Source: Elusimicrobiota bacterium (GTDB taxonomy: Bacteria; Elusimicrobiota; Elusimicrobia; UBA1565; UBA9628). Taken from it: a stretch of DNA of 42,316 nt. A model generated the notes under the pieces. The model was not told the DNA's origin. It saw nothing but the letters and a program-made list of their open reading frames with translations, and did not search any database. Numbering within the stretch: position 1 is the first letter of the stretch; each line of letters opens with the position of its first letter. Of this stretch, positions 1-32,485 are shown one piece after another. The stretch spans positions 1 to 42,316 of the forward strand of contig JAUYSH010000120.1 of assembly GCA_030696455.1 (NCBI GenBank), given 5' to 3'. Position numbers and translations under genes: made by a program.

Positions 1-659
1 CCGCCCGCGGCGGCTCCCCCCGCGCCCGGGGCTGGAGAGCCTCCCGCGCCGGTGTCGCCGCTGAGAGGGATCAGGGGAACGAAGCTCAGCGTGTAGATGC
101 GGGTGATGAGGTTCTCGACCTGCTTGGAGCGCGGCGTCACCACGTAGGTGTTGCTCTTGCCGATCTGCTGATAGGTCAGCCCCTTGATCTCGAGCAGGAC
201 CTGCAGAGCCTCGCGGACGGTCACGTTCTGGAGGAAGGCCGTCACGCGCTTGGACTCCAGGCCCTCGGTGATGATGAAGTTCACCTTCGCCTGCGCCGAG
301 ATCGTGTCGAGGAAGGTGGCCAGCGGCGCGCCCTTGACGCGCACGGTCACGCGCATGTCGAGCGGCGCGGTCGCGGCCGGCGGACCGCCGCGGGACGGCG
401 CGGACGCGCCGATCTGGACGCCCTGGACCTGCCGCGGAGACGCGTCGGGCTCGGGCTCGTCTTCGCCGATGGGGCCGCTGCCGATCGGGCCTCCGCCGGG
501 AGCCGTCGATTGCTGGAACTGTGGATTCGCCTCGGGCTCCGCCCGGCGTCGCTGCGCGAAGGCCTCCGAGGGGCCGGCCGCCGCCAGGCCGAGTGAGACG
601 AGGAGGGAAACGCTCGTTCTCGCGATCTTCATCCAGCGGCTCTCGTGCTTGCGAATCAT
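1..659 (-). CDS. pilQ: Type IV pilus secretin PilQ-like protein, N-terminal part (runs off the window)
   Basis: The reading frame is open from an ATG at 659 to the window edge, giving 219 codons with no stop. It begins with a signal peptide (hydrophobic stretch about residues 14-30, ending near AEAFAQ-like sequence), then a Pro/Gly-rich linker. A secretin/TonB short N-terminal-type domain follows at about residues 100-190, with the pattern of one alpha/beta repeat ending in a TYVVTP strand. A purine-rich ribosome site (AGGAGG) lies 5 bases before the start. PilQ forms the outer-membrane pore through which the pilus leaves. It is the last gene of an operon, 13 bases after pilP. The conserved secretin core must lie beyond the window, so a type II secretion GspD-like secretin is possible, but the pilMNOP context favours PilQ. 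Confidence 0.8.
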   Translation of the reverse strand, partial: MIRKHESRWMKIARTSVSLLVSLGLAAAGPSEAFAQRRRAEPEANPQFQQSTAPGGGPIGSGPIGEDEPEPDASPRQVQGVQIGASAPSRGGPPAATAPLDMRVTVRVKGAPLATFLDTISAQAKVNFIITEGLESKRVTAFLQNVTVREALQVLLEIKGLTYQQIGKSNTYVVTPRSKQVENLITRIYTLSFVPLIPLSGDTGAGGSPAPGAGGAAAG

Positions 660-672
660 GATGCCTCCTGCC

Positions 673-1404
673 CTAATCACGGCTGACGCCCTTGGTGAAC
701 TTCTTGCCCTGATAATTGAACGTCACGCCCAGGTCGGTGATCTTGATGATCCTGATCTTGGTGTCCCCGATGAAATCTCCGACCCCGAGGACCTCGTCGT
801 TGACGATGGCTTTGAAGCCGCTGTCGGGGTTGCTGACGATGCCCTGAAGGTTCACGAGGGAAGTCGGGTTCACCGCCTTGGGCTTGGCCGGCGCGCGATT
901 CCTGAACTTCGACGCGTTCGCGAGGTCCTCGGCGGCTTTGCGCCGGGCTTCCTCTTCCTCGAGGAGGCGAACCATGTCGAACGGCGACAGCGTGGGATCG
1001 CGTTTGAGCGGCAGGATGGTGGTCGACGACGCGGCAAAGGCGGCGGCCGATTCGGTCGACGCGACGGGCGCGGCGTCGACGGCGGGCGCGGGCGGGGGCA
1101 GCGCGGCCGGCGGCTCTGCCGCGGCCGCGGGAATCACGCCGGCGGCGTCCGCCGGGCCGGCGGCGGGCTCGGCCGCGGCCGCGGTGGAAACGGCGGGCGC
1201 CATCGGATTGACGAGCTTGGCGTTCGGGGAAGACTGGAACACCCCCCCTTCGGGGACGCGGCCGCGCGCCTTGGCCGCGACCGCCTTCTCGCGCTCGGCC
1301 TTGAGCCCCGACCACCAGTTGTAAAAGAGCACGCCGGGCACGGCCAGGGCGATCACGAGGATCACCCAGCCGAGGCCGCCGCGAGCGCTTCCGGTGCCGG
1401 CCAT
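673..1404 (-). CDS. pilP: Type IV pilus inner-membrane lipoprotein-like component PilP
   Basis: This 243-residue protein has one membrane segment near the N-terminus (about residues 11-27) and no lipobox, followed by a long Ala/Pro-rich linker. The C-terminal 70 residues form a small beta-domain with the pattern LVNLQGIVSNPDSGFKAIVN, typical of PilP/GspC homology regions (an isolated strand-rich domain that contacts the secretin). The start ATG at 1404 shares one base with the pilO stop (TGATG), so translation is probably coupled. In the known pilus machine PilP bridges the PilN/PilO inner-membrane ring and the PilQ secretin, and its place between pilO and pilQ matches. Classical PilP is a lipoprotein; here a transmembrane anchor seems to replace the lipid, as in GspC. 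Confidence 0.75.
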   Translation of the reverse strand: MAGTGSARGGLGWVILVIALAVPGVLFYNWWSGLKAEREKAVAAKARGRVPEGGVFQSSPNAKLVNPMAPAVSTAAAAEPAAGPADAAGVIPAAAAEPPAALPPPAPAVDAAPVASTESAAAFAASSTTILPLKRDPTLSPFDMVRLLEEEEARRKAAEDLANASKFRNRAPAKPKAVNPTSLVNLQGIVSNPDSGFKAIVNDEVLGVGDFIGDTKIRIIKITDLGVTFNYQGKKFTKGVSRD

Positions 1405-1994
1405 CAGTTGAACCTCTTCTTCGGGATCGCGGTCATCACCGAGGCGGACACGATGTTCCAGCCGAGCATCTCCGGCTTCTTCGTGATTTCGAGCTGGCTG
1501 ACGTGCATCATCGGAGTCGCCCCCTCGAGGCGCAGCAGCCAGGTGTAGACGTCGTTGAACCGGACGCTCAGCTGCACGCTCGAGGTCTGGTAGATCAGGC
1601 CGCTGGCCTCGGTCTCCACCACGGGCCGGAACATCTCGGGCGTGAGGTTGTCGGCGCGCATCGAGTCGATCATCGCGTTCGAGAGCCACTGCTGCTGATC
1701 CTTCAGGTGCGGCAGGGAGCCGTAGGAGCCGGCGAGCTGGTCGCGGACCTCCTTGTAGGCGGCGCTCGACTGAGACATGGCCCGCGCCGCCTCGATCTTC
1801 TCCGTCAGCCGGGAGATCTTGTCCTGCGGGGGCTTGTAAACCCCGAAGTAGGCGGCGGCGACCATGAAAGCGCTTATCCCGAACGCCTTGCCGAACCGCT
1901 TGGCGCCCTTGTGGCGGATCGTCCCGAGCACGAGATCCGCCTCGCTCTTGACTGCGTTCAGGTAAACGTTGAGATCGATGTTCTTGCCGGCCAT
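1404..1994 (-). CDS. pilO: Type IV pilus alignment protein PilO
   Basis: The 196-residue product has a short cytoplasmic N-terminus and one transmembrane helix (about residues 37-53). A helical coiled segment follows (about 58-105, with KISRLTEKIEAARAM), and then a ferredoxin-like C-terminal domain. This is the PilO/GspM plan. PilO pairs with PilN in the periplasm and sets the spacing of the inner-membrane platform. Its ATG at 1994 overlaps the stop of the upstream pilMN gene by one base, and its own stop overlaps pilP. Family length is usually about 200 residues, so it is full length. Confidence 0.78.
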   Translation of the reverse strand: MAGKNIDLNVYLNAVKSEADLVLGTIRHKGAKRFGKAFGISAFMVAAAYFGVYKPPQDKISRLTEKIEAARAMSQSSAAYKEVRDQLAGSYGSLPHLKDQQQWLSNAMIDSMRADNLTPEMFRPVVETEASGLIYQTSSVQLSVRFNDVYTWLLRLEGATPMMHVSQLEITKKPEMLGWNIVSASVMTAIPKKRFN

Positions 1995-3625
1995 CAGGGC
2001 TTCCTCAGCTTCATGTCGATGATGAACTCGGTGCGGCTTTCGAGGCGGCGCGCGAGCGCTTCGGGGTCGAGGCCGCTCCCGGACGAGTCGGGCGAGGTGC
2101 TCTTGCCTTGGACGGAGATCTGCACGTCGAATTTCGGGCCGAGGCTGGGGTCGCTCAACAGGATCTCCTTGAACTGGAAGGCGGTATCCTGCTCCTCGGC
2201 GCCCGTGGCGCCGCGGACCCGCCCGCTCAGGCTGAGCGCGAGGCCCGCCTTGTCGTTGGCCAGGGGATTGAGCACGCTGACCTTGGTGAGCCACATGTTG
2301 TCGGGCATGAGCGCGACGATCTCCCGCAGGATCGTCGAGATCACCACGCGCTCGTTGCCCGTGACCGCGCGTAGCTTCTCGAGCTGATCCTTCATCTCGA
2401 CGAGCTTGAGGTCGATGTCGGCGGGCCTAAGGCCCTGGAGCGCGGCCTGCACGTCCGGCTCGATCTTGTACTCGTTGAGCACCTTGGCGCGCTGGCTGTA
2501 GGTCGTCGCCTGGAAGATGCCGACGCCCGCGATGAGCAGCGCGCCCGCGAGGCCGGCGACGATGATGTCTCGCGCCACCTGGCGTTCGTCGTCGCCGACG
2601 CGGTCCTGCGTGGCGAGATCGATCGTGACCGCCGAGGGAACGGACGGGCGGGTGGAGGCGCCGATGGCCGCGTATCCGCCCCAGTCGCCGCCCTTGATCG
2701 ACAGCAGCTTGGCGGTATCCTGAATCTCGACGGCGACGCCGGTCTCCGCGGTGAAGGCGTCCTTCCAGGGCCCGAGCGTCGCGGGGGTGCCGCTGAGCTT
2801 GATCTTCGAGATCCCGGTCATGCCGAGCTGCTTCTGGGCGAAGGAGAGGCAGCCGGTCATGTCCACTTTGCGCTGGTCGCTGAGCGCCGCGGTCTCGCCC
2901 ATGAAGACCTCGCGGAAGAAGACCGGAAGGCCGCGGTCGCAGATCATGATGCGCACGTTGCCGCCGTCGAAATGAGCCTGCACGAAGGGCTCCGGGCCCT
3001 TGGCGGGCTCCACCGCCTGCCAAAGCCGCAGCACCGAGCAGGGCGCCACCTCGAGCCCGATGAGGTTGAGGCCGAGGGTGGCCAGCAGGCCCTGGATGTT
3101 CGCGAGGTTCTTGTTCTGGGTGACGGCGATGAGCACGCCCAGGCGGGGCTTGCCGGCGGCGTCCGGCGGCATCGCCTCCGCCTGAAAATCATGCGCAAGC
3201 GCGTCGAACGGGATCGGGATGTATTTTTTGGCCTCGATCGGCACCGAGGTGAGCAGGAAGCGGCGCTCCATCGGCGGCATCGGGAAGTAGCGCAGCAGAC
3301 CGAGGTGGTGGGAGAGCGAGACGACCACGTTCTTCGAGTTCCACCGGGTCTGGGACATGGACTGGCGGATCAGCCCGCCGATCTTGACCGGGTCGGCCAG
3401 GAAGTCGGTGCTCATCGTCATGGTGCCCGCGGCCGCGGCCTTGCCTTCAGGCGGGATAGGAATACGCACCAGGTGGTCGACGATGACGGCGCCCCCCTTG
3501 CCGGGACGCGTCTCGGCGATGTAAAGCATCTCGGGGCTCAGGTACAATCCGAGGCAGGGGCCGGACGCCGGCTTGGATTTGCCGAAGGCCAGCGTGTCGA
3601 TCAGCTGATCGAGCTTGGCGATCAT
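1994..3625 (-). CDS. pilMN: Fused PilM-PilN type IV pilus assembly protein
   Basis: One 543-residue frame carries two normally separate proteins. Residues about 24-345 have the actin-like ATPase fold of PilM (GLYLSPEMLYIAE at the start, a nucleotide-binding type pattern HFDGGNVRIMICDRG near 230, and GGYAAIGAS near 345). Residues about 365-385 form a transmembrane helix (IIVAGLAGALLIAGVGIF). The rest is a periplasmic helical and ferredoxin-like region like PilN/GspL C-terminus. In most bacteria cytoplasmic PilM binds the short N-terminal tail of PilN (INLLP motif); a fusion would make that contact permanent, as in GspL of type II secretion. The start at 3625 overlaps the upstream stop by four bases (ATGA). 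No frameshift is needed to read through the junction. Confidence 0.78.
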   Translation of the reverse strand: MIAKLDQLIDTLAFGKSKPASGPCLGLYLSPEMLYIAETRPGKGGAVIVDHLVRIPIPPEGKAAAAGTMTMSTDFLADPVKIGGLIRQSMSQTRWNSKNVVVSLSHHLGLLRYFPMPPMERRFLLTSVPIEAKKYIPIPFDALAHDFQAEAMPPDAAGKPRLGVLIAVTQNKNLANIQGLLATLGLNLIGLEVAPCSVLRLWQAVEPAKGPEPFVQAHFDGGNVRIMICDRGLPVFFREVFMGETAALSDQRKVDMTGCLSFAQKQLGMTGISKIKLSGTPATLGPWKDAFTAETGVAVEIQDTAKLLSIKGGDWGGYAAIGASTRPSVPSAVTIDLATQDRVGDDERQVARDIIVAGLAGALLIAGVGIFQATTYSQRAKVLNEYKIEPDVQAALQGLRPADIDLKLVEMKDQLEKLRAVTGNERVVISTILREIVALMPDNMWLTKVSVLNPLANDKAGLALSLSGRVRGATGAEEQDTAFQFKEILLSDPSLGPKFDVQISVQGKSTSPDSSGSGLDPEALARRLESRTEFIIDMKLRKP

Positions 3626-5628
3626 TCGGTCCTCGCGAACGCCAGATCGACCTTCGCGCCCGCGCCGGAGGAGTCGGAGGTCAGGTAAATGCGCTTGGAA
3701 TCCACCTGATAGCGGTTGACCAGGATGCTGGCGACCATCTTGGCGCGCTTGTCGGCGAGCGCGGCCCCGTCGGGCTCGCCGGCTTCGCTGTGTCCTGTCA
3801 CGCGCAGATTCTCGAGCGGATGCGTCGGCACCGCGGCGGCGGCCGCCGCGAGGAGGCGCTCGGCGTCGGGGGTCAGCTGATAGGTGCCCTTTCCGAAGTT
3901 CAAGGCCCACTTCGTGGCGGCGGACTTCGCAGGCTTGCTCTCCGGCGCGGCCGCGGCCTCATCGGCGGCCTCCTCCTGAGGCGCGGGTGCCGCGGCCTTG
4001 GGCTGGGTCGCGCGGGCGATCCGTCCCTTATCGGCCTTGCCGGCCTTTTTGCCGCGCACGGGGCGCTTGACGACCTGCCGCTTGACGCGGGGCGTTTCGG
4101 AACGCGGGGCGAGCTCCACGGCCCTCGGCGCCGCTTTCACGCCGGCGACGAGGGGCTTCGCCGAGGCTCCCGTCAGGTCCGCGCTGGGCGCCAGCGCGGC
4201 CGCCGCGGCGGGCGCGACCGGCGTCCCCTCCGCCGCGGACACGGCCTCGGCTTTCGTGCCCTCCGAGGCGCCCTGCTCCGCGAGCAGCCGCTCCGAGGCG
4301 CCGCCGTCGTCAAGCACCTGGATCCAGCGGTGCAGCGAGCGCTGCCGGTTCTTGGCGTCGAGGGCCGTCAGCACGCACTCGTAGCGTCCGGGGGGCAAGG
4401 TCTGTCCGAAGTAGTTCTGCTTGCCGTTCCAGAAGATTTGATGGAAGACGGGGCCGCCGCCGACGACGTCCTGCAGCGGCGCGAGCTCGGCCCCGTCGCG
4501 GGACGGCTGCAGCAGCTGGAATTTCCAGGACACGAGCCCGGCGGGCGGGTCGGAAACGGAGAACTCGATGATCACGCCCTGCCCGCGCGCGGGACGGAAC
4601 GACGGAGGATAGACGCCGAGGGAGATGGGCGGCCCGAGCTCGTCGCCGACGGCGCTCTCCACGACGAGGCTCAGCGGCTGGTTGTAGACGAACACGATGA
4701 CGACGCCCTTGAAATCCATCAGGCCTTTCGGGATGTCGACCTGCGTGTTCAGCAGGTTCACCCGCACTCTCGGCGGCGCGATGCCCGCGTTGAAGAAGTG
4801 AGACGAGATCCCCATGGTACGGCGCATGTCCATGACCTTCGCGTCGCCGATCGCGGTTCCCTCCGGCAGGATCACGGCCTGGGTCGTGCCGAGCGCGAAG
4901 ACGAGCTTCGTCAGCGGATCGAGGATCTTGGACGCGCCGGTCTGGAACGCGATGCCGGTCTGGAAAAGCGCCCCCGTCGGGATGCCGATGGCCTCCGGGT
5001 CGCCGTTTTCCCGCATGACGACGCGCACGCCCTCGATCGACTTGACCTCGGACAGGCTCCTCTCGACCGCGTTGCGCAGGCGAGCCCGGATCTCCTTGCG
5101 CATCAAGGTCTTGTTCGCCGCCGGCATGTCGTCGGCGCGCGCGCGCGCGGGCGCGGCCTTCCTGCGGGCCGCGGAGCGGGCGGAGTCGTCGTCGATCGAG
5201 TCGAAGCGGGTCGCGCGGCCGCGTGCGGCCTCGCCGTCGCTGATGGTCTCGGGCTTCACGCGCGCGGTCTCGGCCGGATCGGCGCGCCGGATGGGGCTCG
5301 CGACGTTGGGGTTCACCGGGACGGCGACGGAAACCCCGGCCTTCGGCGTCGGCGCGCCTCCGCCGCCTCCATGGGTGTTCATGCGATGCGTGATGAGATT
5401 GATGTACTCATTGGCCATCGAGCGTTCCGATGGATCGCCCTTCGTGAGAATCTCCATGAAACGGTCCATCGCTTGGATGTCCTCGCCTTGCTCGTAGAAG
5501 CGCACGGCGACCTTCATCGGACGGCTCAGGGCCGCGCCGCCGCTGTCGTCGTCCGACTGCGCGTGAACGCACGGGGCCGCGAGCCCGAGAGAAATGACGG
5601 CGATGACGGTGATTTTATGCAAAAGCAT
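3622..5628 (-). CDS. Secreted TPR-like/OmpA-domain protein heading the pilus operon
   Basis: The 668-residue product has a clear signal peptide (first 24 residues, ending CVHAQ). A short helical repeat-like segment follows (about 35-80, MKVAVRFYEQGEDIQAMDRF), then a low-complexity region. The middle domain (about 170-430) has beta-strand patterns, and a Pro/Ala/Lys-rich linker joins it to a C-terminal OmpA-type domain (about 560-668). That last domain keeps the helix LADKRAKMVASIL, whose Asp/Arg positions bind peptidoglycan in the family. It is the first gene of the pilus operon, so I infer a wall-anchoring role for the pilus machine, comparable in purpose to TsaP or FimV but not homologous by eye. 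Two starts are possible: ATG at 5628 (preferred) or TTG at 5631. Confidence 0.7.
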   Translation of the reverse strand: MLLHKITVIAVISLGLAAPCVHAQSDDDSGGAALSRPMKVAVRFYEQGEDIQAMDRFMEILTKGDPSERSMANEYINLITHRMNTHGGGGGAPTPKAGVSVAVPVNPNVASPIRRADPAETARVKPETISDGEAARGRATRFDSIDDDSARSAARRKAAPARARADDMPAANKTLMRKEIRARLRNAVERSLSEVKSIEGVRVVMRENGDPEAIGIPTGALFQTGIAFQTGASKILDPLTKLVFALGTTQAVILPEGTAIGDAKVMDMRRTMGISSHFFNAGIAPPRVRVNLLNTQVDIPKGLMDFKGVVIVFVYNQPLSLVVESAVGDELGPPISLGVYPPSFRPARGQGVIIEFSVSDPPAGLVSWKFQLLQPSRDGAELAPLQDVVGGGPVFHQIFWNGKQNYFGQTLPPGRYECVLTALDAKNRQRSLHRWIQVLDDGGASERLLAEQGASEGTKAEAVSAAEGTPVAPAAAAALAPSADLTGASAKPLVAGVKAAPRAVELAPRSETPRVKRQVVKRPVRGKKAGKADKGRIARATQPKAAAPAPQEEAADEAAAAPESKPAKSAATKWALNFGKGTYQLTPDAERLLAAAAAAVPTHPLENLRVTGHSEAGEPDGAALADKRAKMVASILVNRYQVDSKRIYLTSDSSGAGAKVDLAFARTE

Positions 5629-5735: not shown

Positions 5736-8303
5736 CTACGGCGTGAGCCCCAGCGCGGCCAAACGGGCCCGTATTGCCGCGTTGCCGGGCTCCAAGGCGA
5801 GCGCCGTGCGCAGCTGCGCCCCCGCGTCCGCCGGCCGGTTCAGCGCCAAATAGGCGTTGGCGAGATTCACGCGCGGCGCGGCCCTCCTCGGGTCCCGGGC
5901 CACCACGGCTTCAAGCTCGGCGGCTCCTTCGGCCGCGCGGCCGTTGGCGAGCAGCAGGCTCCCGTAGACGAACCGGGCTTTCAAGAACGACGGGCGGCGA
6001 GCGACGAGGGCCGACGCCCTGCGCAGAGACCGCATCGACCAATCCCCCTTCGCGACGTCGGCATCGAGCGAGCGCAGCTCCGCGATGTCGTCGAGGATCG
6101 GGGCCCGCGGCCGGCCCGACTGAGCGGCGACGGCGAGCAGGTTCCGCTCGAGGGCGGCGGCGTCGGGGTGTATCTCGAGCGCGCGGGCGTAGGCGGCTTC
6201 GGCCTCGGGCCAGCGCCGGTCGATCGTCATCAGGTAGCCGAGGTTGTTCCAGTGATTCGTGTTCTCCGGGAAAATGCCCGTCGCCTCGGACAGCAGGGCC
6301 TCGGCGAGGGCCTTATGCTTCGCCGGTTCACGCAAATAGAACGCGCTGAGGCCGTTGACCACGGCGTCGGAGAGAGGGTTGAGCGCCCACGCCGTCTCGA
6401 AGTAGCCCCCCGCCTTGTCGGCCCTCCCGAGATGCGAGGCGTACACGGTGCCGAGATTGAAATAGATCTCATCGTAGCCCGCGTTGGCCTGGAGGGCGCC
6501 TTCGTAGGCTTCGGCGGCCTTGGCCGGCTGGCCGGAGCGCGCGTAGGCGTTGCCGAGCTCGTAGATCGCGTTGACCTCGCGCGGGCCCCACGCGCGCGAG
6601 CGCTCGAGCGAGCGGATCGCCGCGGGCATGTTCCCTTGCCGGATCTGCTTGAAGCCCGCGAAGTACCAGGCCTCGCGATTCCAAAAACGCACCTGCCACC
6701 ACGCGGCGAACAGGCACGCGCACGTCAGCACGGCGGCGAAGGCCCGGCGCGCCGCGAGCGGGCCGGGCGCCGGGAGGAAGCCCCCTCCGTCCCGCGCGCC
6801 GCGACCCATCGCGACGCCGGCGAGCCACCAGAACATGAAGGCGGGCACGGCAAAATGCAGGGACACGTTGAGCAGATTGTCGGCGAGCACCGCGGCGACG
6901 CCGGCGACCGCGCCGATCCAGACCGGATCCCCGCCGGCCTTCGTCCTGGCCCAGCGCCAGGCGGCGAGGAAGAACGTCGTCCACAACCACAGGAACGCGC
7001 CGAGGCCGATGAGGCCGGTCTGCGCGAACACCTCGAGGATCTCGTTGTGGGAGTTGTTCGCGTGGGTGCGCATGGTGTGATAAAACCTGTCCGCATGCAG
7101 AAGGGCGCCCTGGTAGAACGGGTAGAACAGCTCGAAGAGCCCTCCCCCTTTGCCCAGCAGCGGCTCCTCGCGGCCCATCAACCAAGACGAGGTCCAGATC
7201 AGCACGCGCTGATGCCAGGGGCTGTAGAAGCCGTCGCGCTTGGCGATCTCCGTGTGCTCGGTCAGCCGGCCGATGAAGGTGGGCGTGTAGCCCGAGGAGA
7301 TCGTGCTCGAGGGCCACGCCAGCGCGAGGGCGAGAGCCAGGCCGAAGAGCAGCCCCGCGGCGCGAGGCTGCTCGCGCAGGCCGGCCCTCAGGCGCGGCGC
7401 CGCCATGAGCGCCGCCGCGCCGACCGCGGCCCCGCCCCATGACGAGCGGGTGAGCGTGGCGAGGAGCGCCGCCTCGAGGACCAGGAACAGGAGGCCGTAC
7501 GCCCAGCGCCGGGGGCCGGATTTTTCCACAAGGAAAAGGGCGAGCGCCGACGGCATCAGGGCCGCGTTGTACGTCGAGAGGAAGTTGGGGTTGCCGAACG
7601 TGGACACCGCTCGACCGCCGTAGGGGTTGAGCACGTTGGGCCAGACCAGCTCGTAATTGAAGTACTGAAGCACGCCGTACACCGAGGCGAGAAATCCCGC
7701 CGCGAAGGCCAGGTGCAGGAAGTCGATCACGCGTCCGCGGCGGCATAGCCAGGCCGCGCCCGCGAGCCCCGCGGCCCAGACGAAGGCGCCGTAGGGGTCC
7801 CAGGCGAGCGTGAAGAAGTCGTCGGGTGACGCGCCGACCCGCGTGCGCATGGAAGGGAACGCGATCCACAGCAGGCCCCAGAACACGACGAAGCCGATCC
7901 ACGGCCCGAGCGGCACGTCGCTCGAGCCGTCGTCGTCGGCCGCGACGTTCGCGGCGAGCCAGAACGCGGCCGCGCAGTTGACGATCAGGAACATCGTCCC
8001 GCGCGCGCCCTCCGCGGCGATCGACGGCCGGAAGAACTCGGCGTGGCCGAGGTAGGCGCGCAGCCAGCTCGCGGCCCAGATGAGGATGAACGCGGCCAGC
8101 GGCCAGGCGATCGGCAATGCCGGCGCACGGGCTCCCCCGGGGCGCTCCGTCTCGCGCCACGCCCACGCCGCGACGGCCAGCGCGAGCAGGATGTTGAGCA
8201 GGGCGATCTGCGAGACGTAGGGGTTGCGCGTGAGGTTGGTGAAGAACAGCAGGGGGCACATGAAATGCGCCGTCACCAACAGCCACCGCCGGGCCGTGTT
8301 CAT
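5736..8303 (-). CDS. O-antigen ligase/polymerase-like membrane protein with C-terminal TPR domain
   Basis: This 855-residue protein has about a dozen hydrophobic segments through residue 530. It includes a large periplasmic loop with the HANNSHNEILEVFAQTGLIG pattern, typical of Wzy/WaaL (Wzy_C) enzymes that join or polymerise surface glycans on a lipid carrier. From about residue 560 on there are tetratricopeptide repeats (for example AIYELGNAYARSGQPAKAAE and HWNNLGYLMTIDRRWPEAEA). WaaL-TPR fusions are frequent in large-genome anaerobes and are often unlinked to an O-antigen locus, as here. The start is uncertain: ATG at 8303 lacks a clear ribosome site, and an in-frame TTG at 8321 sits 8 bases after a CATAAT box at 8330-8335. 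Substrate cannot be told; protein O-glycosylation, for example of pilin, is another option. Confidence 0.72.
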   Translation of the reverse strand: MNTARRWLLVTAHFMCPLLFFTNLTRNPYVSQIALLNILLALAVAAWAWRETERPGGARAPALPIAWPLAAFILIWAASWLRAYLGHAEFFRPSIAAEGARGTMFLIVNCAAAFWLAANVAADDDGSSDVPLGPWIGFVVFWGLLWIAFPSMRTRVGASPDDFFTLAWDPYGAFVWAAGLAGAAWLCRRGRVIDFLHLAFAAGFLASVYGVLQYFNYELVWPNVLNPYGGRAVSTFGNPNFLSTYNAALMPSALALFLVEKSGPRRWAYGLLFLVLEAALLATLTRSSWGGAAVGAAALMAAPRLRAGLREQPRAAGLLFGLALALALAWPSSTISSGYTPTFIGRLTEHTEIAKRDGFYSPWHQRVLIWTSSWLMGREEPLLGKGGGLFELFYPFYQGALLHADRFYHTMRTHANNSHNEILEVFAQTGLIGLGAFLWLWTTFFLAAWRWARTKAGGDPVWIGAVAGVAAVLADNLLNVSLHFAVPAFMFWWLAGVAMGRGARDGGGFLPAPGPLAARRAFAAVLTCACLFAAWWQVRFWNREAWYFAGFKQIRQGNMPAAIRSLERSRAWGPREVNAIYELGNAYARSGQPAKAAEAYEGALQANAGYDEIYFNLGTVYASHLGRADKAGGYFETAWALNPLSDAVVNGLSAFYLREPAKHKALAEALLSEATGIFPENTNHWNNLGYLMTIDRRWPEAEAAYARALEIHPDAAALERNLLAVAAQSGRPRAPILDDIAELRSLDADVAKGDWSMRSLRRASALVARRPSFLKARFVYGSLLLANGRAAEGAAELEAVVARDPRRAAPRVNLANAYLALNRPADAGAQLRTALALEPGNAAIRARLAALGLTP

Positions 8304-8443
8304 TGAGGAAAAGATTAGCAAATACCTTAATTATGTGACGGGCGCTCGCCGTCGTGATGCACCCGCGTCATCCGTGCGTCGTATCCAGTCCCATATATCA
8401 GAGGCGGCATATCAGGGCGCCCTAACTGTTTCCAGAAACAGTC
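8304..8443. other. Intergenic stretch with short repeated motifs
   Basis: No gene is seen. The stretch contains a CATAAT box (minus, 8330-8335) for the ligase-like gene, copies or near-copies of the motif GATAYGACGCAC that recur at 9714-9740 and 10005-10016, and one 18-base palindrome at 8425-8442. Confidence 0.5.
8425..8442. repeat. Palindrome ACTGTTTCCAGAAACAGT, copy 1
   Basis: This is an 18-base near-perfect palindrome of the form CTGT-N8-ACAG. Identical or one-base-different copies occur at 9964-9981 and 35403-35420, all between genes. It lies just outside one end of the IS4-type remnant. Confidence 0.8.
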
Positions 8444-8453
8444 GACTCGCGCC

Positions 8454-9461
8454 GGTGCCAATGCCGATCAGTTAAGAACCCTGAGTTTTCCTCTCCTTGG
8501 TCAAGCCGTACTTGCCCACGCGCATTTTCGTCACGCGCGGATACCGACGCTGTCGTCGAGGCGGCAGGACGAATGTCTCTAGTTTCAGCCTCATCTGCGC
8601 AAGCATCAACGGGAGCTTCCCGGGACTGGCCACCTCCGCCCAGTAGAATAAGTCGCGCATCATCATGAGCGTGGCCTGGAAGCTGATCCTGTTCGCCGGC
8701 AGTTCCAGCTTCAAGGCCATGCCTTCCATCTCTCGCCTGACCAAGTTGTAGGCGATCATCAGGCCAAGAATCTCCTGACGCACGCGGTCGGGCGACGGCG
8801 AACGAATCGCTTCGCGCCGGTCCAATGTTTGCGTCTTGATCTCGTCGTAAGCCAACTCCAATTCCCAGCGTTCGTGATATAGCTCGGCGACTTCACGTGC
8901 TGGATAGAGCTTGGGATCCAATAGCGACGCAACCAACGTGCGCGTTTTGAAGCCGGCCCGGCGGTAGCTGATGACGCGGATGCGCGATGTTTCGGGCAGT
9001 TCGGGATGCTTTTTTCTCGTCGAGCCGGTAACTCTGATCTCGGCCAACTCGTCGCCGGGCTCAAATCGCTCGATCGTATTCCAGACGCGCAAGTCGTCGC
9101 GAGCGCGGACCAGCCACTGCATCCCGCTGTTGGCCGTCCTCGCCCGGCTGGACCAAGTCTAATCGCTGCACGATCTCGGAGATCGAGCGGTCCCGAAATA
9201 GCGCCATGCCCACGACGAGCCAAACGATATTTTCAACCGGCAGCTTGCGCCGACGCAGGGTCGCCATCCCCTGCTTCGCCAGGCAGGACTCGATCCATTC
9301 CATCGGCAAATGAGAACGAAGGCCCTCGAAGGTCGCCGGAAGCCGCCCATCGCCGAGCGCGACAAGCGATGAGGCTGGACTCATCGTGCAGTCTCCTCTC
9401 GGCGGACGAAAAGACTGCAACATTCTCAGGGAAATCAGCTTAATCGATCGGCATTGGCGCC
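8454..9461 (-). mobile_element. IS4-family insertion sequence remnant with terminal inverted repeats
   Basis: The ends 8454-8476 and 9439-9461 are inverted repeats matching at about 20 of 23 positions (core CCAATGCCGATC, then TTAAG). The similarity continues weakly outward to 8444 and 9471 (GACTCGC on both sides). If the element ends at CCAATGCC, the flanks CGCCGGTG and CGCCGCTG could be an imperfect 8-base target duplication. Only one broken transposase gene lies inside. At about 1.0 kb the element is shorter than a full IS4-type element (about 1.4-1.6 kb), consistent with internal deletion. It could still move if a full copy elsewhere supplies transposase. Confidence 0.75.
8472..9384 (-). 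pseudogene. Broken IS4-family transposase
   Basis: Two pieces are in different frames. The N-terminal piece starts at ATG 9384 behind a GAGGAGA ribosome site. It reads as an IS4 N-terminal domain (LPMEWIESCLAKQG, then RRKLPVENIVWLVVGMALF) and loses sense near 9145. The C-terminal piece (about 9122 down to 8472) holds the IS4 YREK signature (YHERWELELAYDEIK) with the catalytic Glu. The central DDE region with the first two catalytic Asp residues is missing: the pieces add up to about 300 residues against some 430-450 in intact relatives. Deletion plus frame change make it inactive. The stop codon TAA lies within the left inverted repeat. Confidence 0.85.
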
Positions 9462-9839: not shown

Positions 9840-9911
9840 AGCCGGGAATCGGATTCGAACCGACGACCTGCTGTTTACGAAACAGCTGCTCTACCGCTGA
9901 GCTATCCCGGC
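9840..9911 (-). tRNA. tRNA-Thr (anticodon CGU)
   Basis: The minus strand folds as a cloverleaf. The 7-bp acceptor stem is GCCGGGA/TCCCGGC, the D arm GCTC...GAGC, and the anticodon stem GCTGT/ACAGC with loop TTCGTAA. The T arm carries GTTCGAATC. The anticodon CGU reads the Thr codon ACG, frequent in this GC-rich window. The 3' CCA is not encoded. Confidence 0.95.
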
Positions 9912-28853: not shown

Positions 28854-28882
28854 TTGACAGACCCCCCCCTGTCTGTTAGACT
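28854..28882 (+). promoter_or_regulatory. Promoter of the lipoprotein operon
   Basis: TTGACA (28854-28859) and TAGACT (28877-28882) are 17 bases apart, with TG one base before the -10. Transcription should start near 28889. The roughly 30-base leader contains a GGGCC...GGCCC hairpin directly before the GGAGGA ribosome site. This gene therefore has a normal leader, unlike its divergent neighbour orn. Confidence 0.75.
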
Positions 28883-28919
28883 TCAGAAACGCCGGGCCAA
28901 AGGCCCGGCCGGAGGACTT

Positions 28920-29492
28920 ATGAACAGCAACAGTTTCGGCCGCATCGCGCTCGTGCTCGTCGCCGCCCTCGCCTTGGGCGCCTGCGGCGGCGCCAAGAAG
29001 TCGCCGATCGCCAACAACGCCCCGGAGTGGGTCAACAAGGGCTCCGGCGCCATGAAGGACAAGGACGGCAAGCAGGTGTTCTACGGGGTCGGCATCGCCC
29101 AGGGCATCCGCAACCGCGCCCTCTCCGTCTCCGCCGCCGACGACCGCGGCCGCGCCGAGCTGGCCAAGATCATGAACTCCTACGTCACCTCGCTGACCAA
29201 GGACTACATGGCCTCGATCACCGCGGGCGACATGACGAAGTCCTCCGAGGAGCAGATGGTCTCCAACACGATGAAGAACTTCGCCAAGTTCACCCTCCAC
29301 GGCTCGATCCCGGTCGACCACTGGAAGGATCCCTCCGACGGGACCTTGTTCGCCCTCGTCAAGCTCGACATGGCGGCCGTCCAACAGAGCCTCAACGAGT
29401 CCAAGGAGCTCGACGCCAAGGTCCGCGACTACGTGAAGGCGAACGCCGAGAAGGCCTTCGACGAGCTCGCCGCGGAAGAGGCGAAGCACTAA
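28920..29492 (+). CDS. LPP20-like lipoprotein
   Basis: The 190-residue lipoprotein has lipobox ALGAC (lipidated Cys22). An LPP20-like domain follows: PEWVNKGSGAMKDKDGKQVFYGVGIAQGI, ADDRGRAELAKIMNSYVTSL, and FALVKLDMAAVQQSL. In this family a strand-helix domain begins with a Trp-containing segment and a GxG turn. It heads a four-gene lipoprotein operon and has a strong GGAGGA ribosome site. Related proteins occur near flagellar or cell-wall-synthesis lipoproteins; here the LpoB-like neighbour points to wall synthesis. It resembles the fourth gene of the operon in layout. Confidence 0.8.
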   Translation: MNSNSFGRIALVLVAALALGACGGAKKSPIANNAPEWVNKGSGAMKDKDGKQVFYGVGIAQGIRNRALSVSAADDRGRAELAKIMNSYVTSLTKDYMASITAGDMTKSSEEQMVSNTMKNFAKFTLHGSIPVDHWKDPSDGTLFALVKLDMAAVQQSLNESKELDAKVRDYVKANAEKAFDELAAEEAKH

Positions 29493-29493
29493 A

Positions 29494-30087
29494 ATGCTCA
29501 AGGCCCTCCCCCTCGTCGGGCTGGCCCTCGTCCTCACGGCGTGCGGCGGCACCTCGGTGCAGCGCATGGACGAAGGCTCGGTCAAGGACGTCAGCGGCCG
29601 CTGGAACGACACCGACTCGCGCCTCGTGGCCGAGGAGATGATCGCCGACAGCCTGTCGCGGCCCTGGTACGGGGCCGCCCAGGCGAAGCTGGGCAAGAAC
29701 CCGACCGTGATCGTGGGCTCGGTCAAGAACCAGTCCCAGGAGCACATCAACACGGACACCTTCGTCGAGGACCTGCAGCGCTCCCTGATCAACTCCGGCA
29801 AGGTGGAGTTCGTCGCCAGCAAGGGCGAGCGCGGCGAGGTCCGCGAGGAGCGCCTCGACCAGGACACGAACGCCGAGGAATCGACCCGCAAGGCCCACGG
29901 CCAGGAGACCGGCGCCGACTTCATGCTCAGCGGCGCGCTGAACCAGATCGTGGACCAGGAAGGCGGCAAGGCCGTGGTCTTCTATCAGACGAACCTCAAG
30001 ATGCTCGACCTGAAGACGAACAAGATCGTCTGGAACGGCCAGAAGAAGCTCAAGAAGTTCGTCAAGCGCTCCAAGGCCGGCTGGTAG
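29494..30087 (+). CDS. lpoB: LpoB-like penicillin-binding-protein activator lipoprotein
   Basis: The 197-residue lipoprotein (lipobox LTAC, Cys17) carries the LpoB core: SGRWNDTDSRLVAEEMIADSL, PTVIVGSVKNQSQEHINTD, FVEDLQRSLINSGKVEFV, and ADFMLSGALNQIVDQEGGKAVVFYQ. In Enterobacteria LpoB reaches through the peptidoglycan to activate PBP1b; homologues outside that group have lacked direct tests. It starts one base after the previous stop. The linker between Cys17 and the core is short, unlike the long disordered stem of E. coli LpoB. Confidence 0.82.
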   Translation: MLKALPLVGLALVLTACGGTSVQRMDEGSVKDVSGRWNDTDSRLVAEEMIADSLSRPWYGAAQAKLGKNPTVIVGSVKNQSQEHINTDTFVEDLQRSLINSGKVEFVASKGERGEVREERLDQDTNAEESTRKAHGQETGADFMLSGALNQIVDQEGGKAVVFYQTNLKMLDLKTNKIVWNGQKKLKKFVKRSKAGW

Positions 30088-30095
30088 GGTGATCG

Positions 30096-31445
30096 ATGGG
30101 CGTTAAACGGCCCCGCCTTTCTCCCCAGAGAGGCGGGGCCGTGCTTTTCCTGCCGCTGCTCGTGCTCCTCGCGGCGTGCGGCGGCCCGTCGGGCTCGATG
30201 CGCAAGGACGTCAACGGCCTGCTCGCCGCCCGGAACTTTGACGGGGCGCAGGCCCGCGTCGAGAAGGCCAAGGAAAGCTCTTACGGGAAGAAGAACCAGG
30301 TCCTCTATTACCTTGACCTCGGCGCGGTCCAGCACGACGCCGGCAGGTTCAAGGAGAGCGACGCGAGCCTCGACAAGGCGGAGCGGCGCATGGAGGAGCT
30401 CTACACCAAGAGCGTGAGCAAGGCCGCCGGGACCTTGGTGCTCAACGACAACACGACCGAGTACGCCGGCGAGCGCTTCGAAAGGGCGATGGTCAACGCC
30501 TACCGCGCGCTCAATTATGTGTTCCTCGGCGACCAGGAGAACGCCCTCGTCGAGGTGCGCAAGCTCTCCCGCCTCCTTCAGGAGTACGCCGACACGCTCC
30601 ACGGAAAGAATACGGCCTACAAGGACGACGCTTTCGCCCAGTTCCTCGCCAGCCTGCTCTACGAGGACGACGGCCGCCTCGACGATGCGCGCATCGCCCG
30701 GGAAAAATCCCGCGCCGCCTACAAGCTGTACGCCGCCGCCTACGGCCTGCCCGCCCCGTCTTTGGAGCCCGCGGGCGGGAAGAACGGCGGGGAGCTCGTG
30801 TTCCTGCATTACAACGGCGTCGCCCCCCGCAAGGTCAGCAAGTCCTTCTCCGTGGCCTGGCGCGACGCCGCCATCGCCCTCGACGCCTCTCAGGACGACG
30901 AAGCCGAGGCCGCCAAGGCCAAGAACGCGATCCGCGGCGGGCTGCTCGGCAAGTCCATCACGGTCTCCTACCCCGACTACGTCCAGGACCCGTTCCAAAT
31001 CGCCGCCTCCGCGGTCGAGGCCGGAGGCGTGACCGCGCCGACGGAGCTCGCCCAGGATATCTCCGCCATCGCGCGCAAGGACCTGGCCGAGCGGCAGGCG
31101 GTGATCCGCACGCGCGCCATCGCCCGCGCGACGGTCAAGTTCGTCCTCGCCAAGGCCGTCGCCGACGAGGTCTCCAAGAAGTACGGCAAGAACTCCTGGC
31201 AGCACCTTCTCGCCCAGGCCGGCGGGGCCGCCACGTCGGCCGCCACCGAGGGCGCCGACATCCGGGCCTGGGCCACCTTGCCCGCGCAGTTCCGCGTCGC
31301 GCGCCTGCGCCTGCCGCCCGGCACGCATGACGTGGTCGTCAAGTACCTGGGTCCCTCGGGCGCCGAGCTTTCCAGCCGCACGTTCAAAGACGTCGTCATC
31401 CGCCAAGGACGGCGAACCTACCTCCACGACAGGACCGCTCTATGA
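30096..31445 (+). CDS. COG3014-like TPR lipoprotein
   Basis: This 449-residue lipoprotein has Cys28 in LLVLLAAC. A helical repeat region follows (YYLDLGAVQHDAGRFKESDASL, ERAMVNAYRALNYVFLGDQE, ALVEVRKLSRLLQEY), then a strand-rich second half ending RLPPGTHDVVVKYLG. This is the COG3014 layout, a family often found beside LpoB and LPP20-like genes. ATG 30096 lies 8 bases after the previous stop. The first 15 codons overlap a 12-bp GC hairpin (30107-30142). A GTG at codon 16 directly after the hairpin is an alternative start that would still give a lipoprotein signal. Confidence 0.8.
   Translation: MGVKRPRLSPQRGGAVLFLPLLVLLAACGGPSGSMRKDVNGLLAARNFDGAQARVEKAKESSYGKKNQVLYYLDLGAVQHDAGRFKESDASLDKAERRMEELYTKSVSKAAGTLVLNDNTTEYAGERFERAMVNAYRALNYVFLGDQENALVEVRKLSRLLQEYADTLHGKNTAYKDDAFAQFLASLLYEDDGRLDDARIAREKSRAAYKLYAAAYGLPAPSLEPAGGKNGGELVFLHYNGVAPRKVSKSFSVAWRDAAIALDASQDDEAEAAKAKNAIRGGLLGKSITVSYPDYVQDPFQIAASAVEAGGVTAPTELAQDISAIARKDLAERQAVIRTRAIARATVKFVLAKAVADEVSKKYGKNSWQHLLAQAGGAATSAATEGADIRAWATLPAQFRVARLRLPPGTHDVVVKYLGPSGAELSSRTFKDVVIRQGRRTYLHDRTAL
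30107..30142 (+). terminator. GC-rich hairpin inside the lipoprotein operon
   Basis: Stem ACGGCCCCGCCT (30107-30118) pairs perfectly with 30131-30142, with an inner CTC/GAG pairing, and GCTTTTCC follows. It straddles the 5' end of the third gene. It could cause partial termination or mask translation, lowering the last two lipoproteins relative to the first two. Confidence 0.55.
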
Positions 31446-32485
31446 GAAACACGCTGCTCGTAGCACTCGCCGCCGCCGTGCCCCTGCTGACCGCGTGCGG
31501 AGGCGGAGCCGCGCGTAAATCCTCCTCCGGCGGGTCGCGGCCCAACTGGGTGGAGGGCGAGAGCCCCCGCTGGACGCGCGCCCAGAACGTCCTCGGCGTC
31601 GGCAGCGGCGACGATGAGGAGTCGGCCGCCGACCGCGCCCGCGGCGAGATCTCCCGCGTGTTCTCGAGCGCGGTCACCGTGGACACCACCGTCGACGAGA
31701 CCGAGACGAGCCTCTCCCAAGGCGGCGCGGCGAGCACCTCGTTCTCGCAGGTCGTCGCCCAGAAGGTGCAGACCGCCTCGAAGAAGATGCTCGAGGGCGT
31801 CGAGGTCGTCGAGCGCTGGAAGGACGCCTCCACGAACCGTCATTACGCCCTGGCCGTTCTCAACAAGGGCAAAGCCATGGTCGCCGTCGCTGAGCGGACC
31901 GCCGCGCTCGATGCCGACGCGTCGCTGTGGAAGGCCCGCCTCGAAGGCTCCGTCGACCGCTTCGAGCGCGCCAAGGCCGGCGCGAAGCTCGCCGCCGTGC
32001 TCAAGGGCCGGCTCGACCTCGAGAACGACCGCCGCGTGCTGGGCGGCGGCGCGCTCGCCTCGACCGTCGATGTCTCCGCCGCGCGGGCCGCCGCGGCCTT
32101 AGCACTCCAGGCGCTCGACGTCGTCGTCATCGCGACCGGGGAGCACTCCGAGGGGCTTGAGACCGGCCTCGTCTCCGGCCTCGCCGCCTCGGGGCTCACG
32201 GCCAAGCGCGGCAACCCCGGCGACGCCGGCGATCTGATCGTCGAGTCCCGCTCCGGCGCCCAGACGGTCGAGGGAGGCGACGCCCGCTGGAAATGGTCGC
32301 GAGGGTCGGCGACGGTCACCCTCAAGGACGGCCGCGCGGACAAGGCCTTCGCCCGCTTCGAGGTGACCGAGCGCCAGGCCTCTGCCGACGCCGGCGAGGC
32401 CCGCCGCCGCGCCGCCGCCGGCCTGGCGAAAAAGGCCGCCGAGCAGACCGCCTCGGCCATCACCGCCTTCTTCGAGAACCAGTAA
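31442..32485 (+). CDS. LPP20-like lipoprotein with C-terminal extension
   Basis: The 347-residue lipoprotein (lipobox LLTAC, Cys19) has an LPP20-like first half: RPNWVEGESPRW, VLGVGSGDDEESAADRARGEISRVFSS, then VERWKDASTNRHYALAVLNK. The second half (about 175-347) alternates strands and helices and contains a predicted LPS-assembly/LptE-like or secretin-like small domain that I cannot name. The ATG overlaps the previous stop by four bases. It is the last gene of the operon, convergent with the AsmA-like gene. Confidence 0.78.
   Translation: MRNTLLVALAAAVPLLTACGGGAARKSSSGGSRPNWVEGESPRWTRAQNVLGVGSGDDEESAADRARGEISRVFSSAVTVDTTVDETETSLSQGGAASTSFSQVVAQKVQTASKKMLEGVEVVERWKDASTNRHYALAVLNKGKAMVAVAERTAALDADASLWKARLEGSVDRFERAKAGAKLAAVLKGRLDLENDRRVLGGGALASTVDVSAARAAAALALQALDVVVIATGEHSEGLETGLVSGLAASGLTAKRGNPGDAGDLIVESRSGAQTVEGGDARWKWSRGSATVTLKDGRADKAFARFEVTERQASADAGEARRRAAAGLAKKAAEQTASAITAFFENQ

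What the first reader, a model, noticed from the sequence alone, without database searches (positions are those of the whole stretch)
1994..5628. Type IV pilus operon with fused PilM-PilN and an OmpA-domain leader gene
PilM and PilN are usually separate and meet through a short PilN peptide; here they are one polypeptide, echoing GspL of type II secretion. The operon also begins with a 668-residue secreted protein ending in a peptidoglycan-binding OmpA domain, not part of the standard pilMNOPQ set. PilP also appears to have a transmembrane anchor instead of a lipid. Together this suggests a pilus platform with its own wall anchor.
Basis: partly seen in the sequence, partly recalled or inferred. 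Interest (0 to 1): 0.5.

Follow-up and report, generated by a model that had tools for sequence, protein, structure and literature searches.

The report
Divergent pilus machine with wall-anchored leader
These bacteria carry, besides an ordinary type IV pilus machine, a second and compact one in which two inner-membrane parts are welded into a single protein and a wall-binding protein leads the operon; in small-genome relatives it is the only such machine seen, alongside dozens of pilus-subunit genes.

Summary
In detail: a 543-residue PilM-PilN fusion without frameshift, a PilO-like protein, a membrane-anchored PilP-like protein, a secretin cut by the contig end, and a 668-residue leader ending in an OmpA domain. 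But it is this Elusimicrobiota genome's second pilus-type machine: separate pilM, pilN, pilO, pilQ and pilB genes lie elsewhere. By inference the window operon continues on another contig with ATPase, platform and four pilins. The fusion matched in 189 of 294 phylum genomes (16 outside the class, weakly; some families of the class lack it). The leader preceded it in 75 of 75 testable named loci. Family matches are pilus-like; gene order, fusion and membrane-anchored PilP resemble type II secretion. In one small-genome lineage conventional PilM is missing (0 of 26 genomes), prepilin motifs number 12 to over 90, PilT is intact in the six genomes checked, and the leader lacks its terminal OmpA domain (0 of 16). 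So the wall anchor is dispensable. PilM-PilN fusions are already reported for Campylobacterota. A new variant of a known kind.

The parts
3622..5628 (-). Leader gene, 668 aa: signal-like N terminus, TPR-like helices, OmpA-like core, beta (Ig-like) domain, disordered linker, terminal OmpA domain
5374..5523 (-). TPR-like helical stretch of the leader (residues 37-86, numbered from TTG 5631)
   Evidence: AlphaFold helices 37-47, 51-64, 67-86; very weak profile similarity to LapB (E 0.17-0.42)
4654..5115 (-). OmpA-like core domain of the leader (residues 173-326)
   Evidence: YiaD 2k1s Z 12.2 over 183-326; kept also where the terminal domain is lost
4312..4629 (-). Beta domain of the leader (residues 335-440), read as Ig-like
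   Evidence: seven strands at mostly high pLDDT in the AlphaFold model; the name is inference, the domain was not searched alone
3625..3924 (-). Terminal OmpA domain of the leader (residues 570-669); absent in the small-genome lineage
   Evidence: Pfam OmpA 1.5e-8; Z 15.2 to 9uu2; losses
1994..3625 (-). Fused PilM-PilN (GspL-like layout), 543 aa
2636..3625 (-). Actin-like PilM part of the fusion (residues 1-330)
   Evidence: PilM 5eou Z 23.6, 2ych Z 22.5
2615..2623 (-). Junction motif hydrophobic-D/E-hydrophobic (residues 335-337), proposed counterpart of the PilN N-terminal INLLP peptide
   Evidence: Asp in 19 and Glu in 2 of 21. Of the PilM rows only the PilM:PilN1-12 chimera aligns beyond residue 330, to 342, but unrelated actin-like rows reach that far too, so this is weak support
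2507..2569 (-). Transmembrane helix of the fusion (about residues 353-373)
   Evidence: hydropathy, helix 345-385
2006..2341 (-). Periplasmic PilN-like alpha-beta domain (residues 429-540)
   Evidence: AlphaFold element order; profile match to M. xanthus PilN E 0.0032 over 354-450; Pfam PilN 0.0036, under its cut-off, in relative L037
1404..1994 (-). PilO/GspM-like protein, 196 aa, one N-terminal hydrophobic helix
   Evidence: sub-threshold T2SSM 0.021 and GspM_XpsM 2.6e-4; Pfam PilO over cut-off in L053; O, P and secretin kept in 62 of 62 testable named loci
673..1404 (-). PilP/GspC-like protein, 243 aa, TM-anchored, no lipobox
   Evidence: only a sub-threshold T2SSB match, 0.019; the name rests on position and topology
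3..680 (-). Secretin, N-terminal 226 aa, cut by the contig start; the other half is read at the end of contig C36
   Evidence: STN 1.2e-7, PilQ model 1.6e-7; halves match residues 1-218 and 256-593 of the L034 secretin at 84% each
5736..8321 (-). Wzy_C (O-antigen ligase / O-oligosaccharyltransferase type) membrane protein with C-terminal TPRs; same-strand neighbour of the leader
   Evidence: Pfam Wzy_C 7.7e-14 and TPRs; upstream in 59 of 63 testable named loci

Best explanation
This is a complete, separate type IV filament machine, widespread in the class Elusimicrobia, built of parts that resemble type IVa pilus proteins and laid out like a type II secretion operon. Proposed working: the cytoplasmic actin-like PilM part, which no longer shows the usual ATP-binding aspartate, sits under the ATPase and platform. 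It is welded through a short acidic motif (proposed counterpart of PilN's INLLP peptide), one TM helix and a coiled stretch to the periplasmic PilN part, so the two cannot come apart. The PilO-like and TM-anchored PilP-like proteins link it to the secretin. One major and three minor (pseudo)pilins form a filament. The exported leader holds or aligns the secretin end: its TPR-like/OmpA-like/beta core is the constant part, and a long flexible linker with a terminal OmpA domain tethers it to the wall in most members seen. It most likely makes a retractable pilus. Shown: gene content, fusion, conservation, coexistence with a second machine, lineage-specific losses. Inferred: continuation on C36, contacts, filament type, wall binding, retraction.
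For: Fusion at 22-88% identity in the listed rows. Leader 75/75, O-P-secretin 62/62, downstream ATPase and platform 51/53 testable named loci. Own genome also holds pilM, pilN, pilO, an AMIN-bearing secretin and a PilB-type ATPase and a locus read as Tad-like. Nearest folds are PilM, Z 18.4-23.6, above GspL at 14.4-15.6. The profile finds four PilM sequences and one PilN in the PDB and no GspL at E up to 10. PDB best match of the ATPase is PilB (491 bits; best GspE 375). E. coli GspG, GspK, GspL, GspM, GspC and GspD ring their Pfam families; the operon's counterparts do not reach those cut-offs. In 26 of 26 small-genome family members conventional PilM is missing while the fusion is present. 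Six of these have one PilB/GspE-type ATPase each, the operon's, and intact PilT (10 of the 11 PilT-sized frames submitted, all 10 over cut-off).
Against: Type II-like traits: single-locus order L-M-C-D-E-F-G-I-J-K, fused L, TM-anchored C, no PilT or PilY1 noticed in the loci read, and coexistence with conventional PilM in 37 of the 39 non-f4 genomes that have a strong fusion match. The L protein of an annotated type II locus, Comamonas, also fails T2SSL and GspL_C and rings only PilN, so failing those models does not exclude type II. The GspE chains align over fewer residues than the PilB chains, and over the shared core Thermus PilF (329 bits) scores below GspE (375). The O protein has sub-threshold GspM matches. 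NCBIfam scores are close and below cut-offs for both systems (ATPase PilB 586, GspE 553; L053 secretin GspD 221, PilQ 212), and the platform scores best with GspF. The ATPase tree does not resolve its place. PilT lies elsewhere and could serve another role. The loss of PilM and the pilin increase are one lineage, so perhaps one event.
Confidence: 0.65

Rival explanations
1. A genuine type II secretion system in divergent form: the operon exports folded proteins with a short pseudopilus, and the sequence families have drifted past recognition.
For: The inferred gene order is, but for a missing H, a cyclic permutation of the order read in Comamonas and is close to other T2SS loci. GspL/PulL is described as a PilM+PilN fusion (PMC10191384, passages). 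A Comamonas T2SS L protein also misses T2SSL and GspL_C and rings only PilN. TM-anchored PilP-like protein. The last minor pilin lacks Glu5, as E. coli GspK does. Sub-threshold GspM matches of the O protein. Of 39 non-f4 genomes with a strong fusion match 37 keep a conventional PilM. T2SS were under-recognised outside Proteobacteria (PMC6668835, passages).
Against: No T2SSG in 7 major pilins and no T2SSK in the window genome's K, although E. coli controls ring. K-like frames are roughly 90-160 residues from the cleavage site, against 327 for E. coli GspK. One Secretin_N against three. PDB ATPase match nearer to PilB, with the caveat on aligned length. PilT is kept and prepilin genes are numerous where this is the only such machine seen.
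Confidence: 0.28
2. The leader is a general wall or outer-membrane protein that only shares the promoter and does not act with the machine.
For: The terminal OmpA domain is dispensable (0 of 16 in one lineage); OmpA proteins are common.
Against: The leader sits next to the fusion in 75 of 75 testable named loci and 15 of 15 further loci, also where ATPase and platform genes lie upstream, with a 4-base overlap in the window.
Confidence: 0.12
3. The fusion is a sequencing or assembly artefact.
For: The operon lies at a contig end in a 147-contig assembly; one relative, a complete long-read genome, has broken frames in neighbouring genes (L036).
Against: The same single frame in 21 of 21 aligned sequences, relatives at 21-88% identity.
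Confidence: 0.01

Closest known systems
Type IVa pilus PilM-PilN-PilO-PilP-PilQ platform
   Same: PilM fold and profile, PilN/PilO-like periplasmic parts, secretin with STN and one Secretin_N as in PilQ, PilB-like ATPase, PilC/GspF platform, type IV pilins
   Different: pilM and pilN fused; PilP-like protein with TM anchor; secretin without AMIN match; genes in one locus with pilins; TPR-like/OmpA/beta leader; usual ATP-binding Asp absent
Type II secretion system GspL-GspM-GspC-GspD
   Same: fused PilM+PilN layout, TM-anchored C-like protein, gene order, single locus, last minor pilin without Glu5
   Different: type II-specific Pfam cut-offs not reached; larger actin-like part (about 330 aa; T2SSL covers residues 6-233 of E. 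coli GspL); small K; fewer secretin N domains; a leader not seen in the type II loci fetched here
Campylobacterota type IV pilus clusters with fused pilM-pilN
   Different: sequences not compared here; no OmpA leader is mentioned in the passages seen
Akkermansia Amuc_1101 family (NF045709), a 608-position PilM-like model
   Same: hit by the window fusion at 7e-8; the model is long enough to hold PilM plus a further domain
   Different: only part of the PilM region aligns; whether its C-terminal part is PilN-like was not tested

Membership tests
Type IVa pilus machine | PilM family actin-like protein | tested here: met
   Pfam PilM_2 over cut-off in relatives such as L037 and L039, 21.4 bits against a cut-off of 27 in the window itself; Z 23.6 to PilM
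Type IVa pilus machine | separate pilM and pilN, PilN starting with the INLLP-type peptide | tested here: not met
   one frame in 21 of 21; the conventional pilN of the same genome starts MIKINLVP
Type IVa pilus machine | PilP is a lipoprotein (recalled) | tested here: not met
   0 of 84 frames with a lipobox-like motif, hydrophobic helix instead; the PilP-sized gene of the conventional set shows no lipobox either
Type IVa pilus machine | PilQ secretin with AMIN plus N0, N1 (recalled) | tested here: not met
   STN plus one Secretin_N, no AMIN at E up to 0.1 in the L034 and L053 secretins; own conventional secretin has AMIN
Type IVa pilus machine | retraction ATPase PilT available | tested here: inconclusive
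   none noticed in the locus; elsewhere in six small genomes 10 of 10 submitted frames (of 11 found) exceed the PilT cut-off
Type IVa pilus machine | builds a surface pilus | not testable with these tools
   -
Type II secretion system | GspL (T2SSL plus GspL_C) | tested here: inconclusive
   no match at E up to 1 in the window; E. coli GspL rings 2e-84 and 6e-42, but the Comamonas type II L protein fails them too
Type II secretion system | GspD with N0 and three further N domains | tested here: not met
   one Secretin_N in two full-length secretins against three in E. coli GspD
Type II secretion system | GspG (T2SSG) major and GspK (T2SSK) minor pseudopilins | tested here: not met
   7 major pilins and the window genome's K show no T2SSG/T2SSK; E. 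coli controls ring
Type II secretion system | one locus with fused L, TM-anchored C and a pilin cassette | tested here: met
   in the window's own genome split over two contigs
Type II secretion system | secretes folded proteins | not testable with these tools
   -
OmpA-type peptidoglycan binder (leader) | OmpA fold with Asp/Arg pair that binds diaminopimelate (motif recalled) | tested here: inconclusive
   fold met; Arg 17 of 17, canonical Asp 0 of 17 in aligned terminal domains

The most novel reading that the evidence does not exclude
In one small-genome Elusimicrobiota lineage this fused machine has replaced the lost conventional type IV pilus and, cut loose from the wall by loss of the leader's OmpA domain but still served by PilT, assembles a very large and variable set of pilins (12 to over 90 genes in 1.3-1.7 Mb genomes): a hard-wired, single-locus pilus machine specialised for a diversified pilin repertoire.
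Probability: 0.35. Interest if true: 0.72.

Novelty: new variant of a known kind. Interest (0 to 1): 0.52.

Why it matters
It looks like a natural intermediate between type IVa pili and type II secretion: pilus-like parts in a secretion-style layout, including a fused PilM-PilN. It offers a test of which of these features go with pilus building and which with secretion. The lineage that keeps only this machine, plus PilT and dozens of prepilins, makes that test direct if a cultured member is used. It also gives a natural experiment on wall anchoring, since one lineage lost the OmpA domain of the leader and the others seen kept it.

Tried and rejected
Frameshift or assembly artefact as the cause of the fusion: rejected. 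Leader as an unrelated neighbour: largely rejected. Placing the operon ATPase among type II or type IVa ATPases by tree: inconclusive; the operon clade is 100/100 but the backbone is open, long branches meet, and the bootstrap had not settled (L103, a fragment, was dropped before the tree). In the list for the leader the rows cover mostly the terminal OmpA domain; the beta domain is called Ig-like from its strands only. Literature: in the listings and the passages read I saw no description of this operon in Elusimicrobiota; most listed papers were not opened, the library lacks most subscription papers, and the E. minutum genome paper, which I recall as noting many pilE genes, was not seen.
Full report
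WHAT IS THERE. The window is the first 42,316 bases of contig C75 (117,824 bases) of a 4.01-Mb, 147-contig genome. On the minus strand lie, in order: a Wzy_C+TPR membrane protein (8321-5736), the leader (5628-3622, 668 aa), the fusion (3625-1994, 543 aa), a PilO/GspM-like protein (1994-1404), a PilP/GspC-like protein (1404-673) and a secretin cut off at the contig start (680-3). Genes from the leader to the PilP-like protein overlap by 1-4 bases. The frame is open across the junction with an even coding signature, and 21 of 21 aligned sequences, the window's included, are one frame.

THE REST OF THE OPERON. Contig C36 ends in the other half of a secretin, followed by a PilB/GspE-type ATPase, a PilC/GspF platform protein and four pilin-type proteins. 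The two secretin halves match residues 1-218 and 256-593 of one relative's secretin at 84% each; the gap between them falls in a Gly/Ala-rich linker. I infer that C36 continues C75; the contigs were not joined and share no exact overlap. A relative on one 1,643,562-bp contig (L053; the size is the one I recall for Elusimicrobium minutum, not confirmed by a call) shows the same run unbroken: leader, fusion, O, P, secretin, ATPase, platform, six pilin-type genes.

HOW WIDESPREAD. The fusion matched in 189 of 294 phylum genomes; 16 of the 189 lie outside the class, all with E of 7.9e-8 or weaker, and may be ordinary PilM. Some class members have no match or only a weak one (for example families f7, f9, f12 and two f1 genomes of the window's own genus). 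In the named collection 82 relatives were found and 80 kept: 68 are titled Elusimicrobia, Elusimicrobiota, Elusimicrobiales or Elusimicrobium and 12 only 'bacterium'. In those 80, where enough sequence is present, the leader precedes the fusion in 75 of 75, O-P-secretin follow in 62 of 62, ATPase and platform follow in 51 of 53 (not L097, L100), and the Wzy_C gene lies upstream in 59 of 63 (not L085, L095, L097, L100). In five loci (L044, L045, L095, L099, L100; L044 and L100 share a contig length) the ATPase and platform genes lie upstream of the leader instead.

NOT THE ONLY MACHINE. The same genome has pilM, pilN, pilO, a PilP-sized gene without a Pfam match, and an AMIN-bearing PilQ on C113; a PilB-type ATPase on C6 beside frames read as pilT and pilC by position, size and T2SSE match; and a locus on C106 read as Tad-like. 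Secretin domains were found at three places. The conventional PilN starts with MIKINLVP.

THE FUSION. AlphaFold (mean pLDDT 81.6) gives an actin-like part to about residue 330, a TM helix within 345-385, a coil and an alpha-beta domain at 429-540. The best structural rows are PilM: the PilM:PilN1-12 chimera 5eou (Z 23.6, rmsd 4.4, 299 aligned, model 22-342), 2ych (22.5) and 3jc8 (21.4). FtsA rows follow at up to 17.5, and GspL cytoplasmic domains score 14.4-15.6. Of the PilM rows only the chimera aligns beyond residue 330, which would fit the junction motif (hydrophobic, Asp or Glu, hydrophobic; acid in 21 of 21) standing where PilN's peptide binds. But Hsp70 and MreB rows reach as far, so this is weak. 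The Asp of the first phosphate motif (GxDxG type, recalled; GIDVG in the conventional PilM of this genome) is absent in 21 of 21, so nucleotide binding is probably lost. By sequence profile the PDB gives four PilM sequences and one PilN and no GspL at E up to 10.

PILUS OR TYPE II SECRETION. For type II: the layout. Comamonas runs E-F-G-H-x-x-K-L-M-x-D (x for unnamed pilin or hypothetical), Bradyrhizobium E-F-G-H-I-J-K-L-M and Methylosinus E-F-G-x-x-x-K-L-M with D divergent beside it, L being annotated as a PilN-domain protein. The inferred window order L-M-C-D-E-F-G-I-J-K is, but for H, a cyclic permutation of the Comamonas one; the letters for the minor pilins are mine. PulL is described as a PilM-PilN fusion (PMC10191384, passages). 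Type IVa genes are usually in several loci (PMC6668835, passages). For the pilus family: E. coli K-12 type II proteins ring T2SSL, GspL_C, T2SSM, T2SSC, T2SSG, T2SSK and three Secretin_N. The operon proteins ring PilM_2 (over cut-off in relatives), PilO (over cut-off in L053), PilN weakly, a single Secretin_N and, for the pilins, only the prepilin motif. Against a clean verdict: the window's O has sub-threshold T2SSM (0.021) and GspM (2.6e-4) matches and its P a sub-threshold T2SSB match (0.019). The Comamonas type II L protein rings only PilN. The ATPase's best PDB match is PilB (491 bits) against 375 for GspE, but the GspE chains align over fewer residues and the Thermus PilF core alone scores 329. 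NCBIfam scores are nearly even and below cut-off (PilB 586, GspE 553; platform best with GspF; L053 secretin GspD 221, PilQ 212), though the conventional PilB of this genome also misses its cut-off narrowly (668 against 676). The ATPase tree gives the operon its own 100/100 clade but no resolved position.

A LINEAGE THAT KEPT ONLY THIS MACHINE. In 79 class genomes of at least 90% completeness, the 26 of family f4 (genera g18, g19, g23; 1.3-1.7 Mb) have no conventional PilM (0 of 26 at E below 1e-20; in three no PilM match at all). The fusion is present in 26 of 26 (two less complete f4 genomes there, G252 and G263, have no match). Of the other 53, 51 have conventional PilM (not G160, G152). 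In one search, 39 of these 53 have a strong fusion match (9 have none, 5 only a weak one), and 37 of the 39 have both. Six of the 26 were looked at further: each has one PilB/GspE-type ATPase, the operon's, one Tad-like ATPase and two PilT-sized ones, one of these split in G034. Eleven intact PilT-sized frames were found; ten were submitted and all ten exceed the PilT family cut-off. Each of the six has two secretins, one at the operon and one beside the Tad-like ATPase. T2SS is described as having lost PilT (PMC10191384, passages). This is why I favour a pilus. It is one lineage and may be one event.

THE LEADER. AlphaFold (mean pLDDT 71.0) shows TPR-like helices at 37-86, an OmpA-like core at about 173-326 (YiaD Z 12.2), a beta domain at 335-440, a low-confidence linker at 456-571 and a terminal OmpA domain (Z 15.2 to 9uu2). 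The terminal domain is found in the same frame in 77 of 78 named leaders (in L089 it lies in the next frame), but in 0 of 16 leaders of the small-genome lineage (L052, L053; 14). An f4 genome of another genus (L221) keeps it. Some named loci titled Elusimicrobium (L138, L142, L147) keep it too, so the loss does not follow that name. L053 has a lipobox-like LAGC; of the 14 only L210 has such a motif, so a switch to a lipid anchor is not a general rule. In aligned terminal domains the Arg of the binding pair is kept in 17 of 17 and the usual Asp in 0 of 17. Wall binding is therefore likely by fold but unproven.

PRIOR WORK. Most Campylobacterota pilus clusters are reported to have pilM and pilN fused (PMC11870540, passages). 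A Tad-like region is reported for E. minutum (PMC8809381, passages). Pilins are described as the only appendages of Endomicrobiaceae (PMC11257099, passage). The paper on the CP096137 genome holds none of the words secretion, pili or pilus (PMC9476967, term search).

VERDICT.

Noticed in passing
Own genome C118, C134 and C6:17090-18193 (L056, L057, L060): Three PilB/GspE-type ATPases carry N-terminal response-regulator receiver domains (Response_reg 2.6e-23, 4.9e-22, 6e-57), in one case with two receiver stretches: signalling domains fused directly to filament-type motors.
   Followed up: partly
Window 8472-9423: Remnant of a DDE transposase (DDE_Tnp_1 7.6e-11 for the frame 9122-8472), with further short frames beside it, between the Wzy_C gene and a tRNA-Thr at 9840-9911.
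   Followed up: no
G036:C1:732119 and 734279, G003:C4:126668 and 128556, likewise G045, G028, G220, G134: A weak PilM-like protein of about 415-436 aa lies about 2 kb from a PilT-sized ATPase in these six genomes: a possible further conserved PilM/PilT locus, kept even where the conventional pilus is lost.
   Followed up: no
Window 28854-32485: Run of four same-strand ORFs with lipoprotein-like N termini (ACGG), none examined further.
   Followed up: no
Window 5736-8321: The Wzy_C+TPR protein is kept beside the leader in 59 of 63 testable named loci, with a second, weaker Wzy_C match further upstream in many; it could glycosylate pilins or ligate O-antigen.
   Followed up: partly
L036/L077 (CP096137): The complete genome of the same genus shows broken frames in the Wzy_C, leader, P and secretin genes; I suspect read errors rather than decay, since relatives are intact.
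   Followed up: partly
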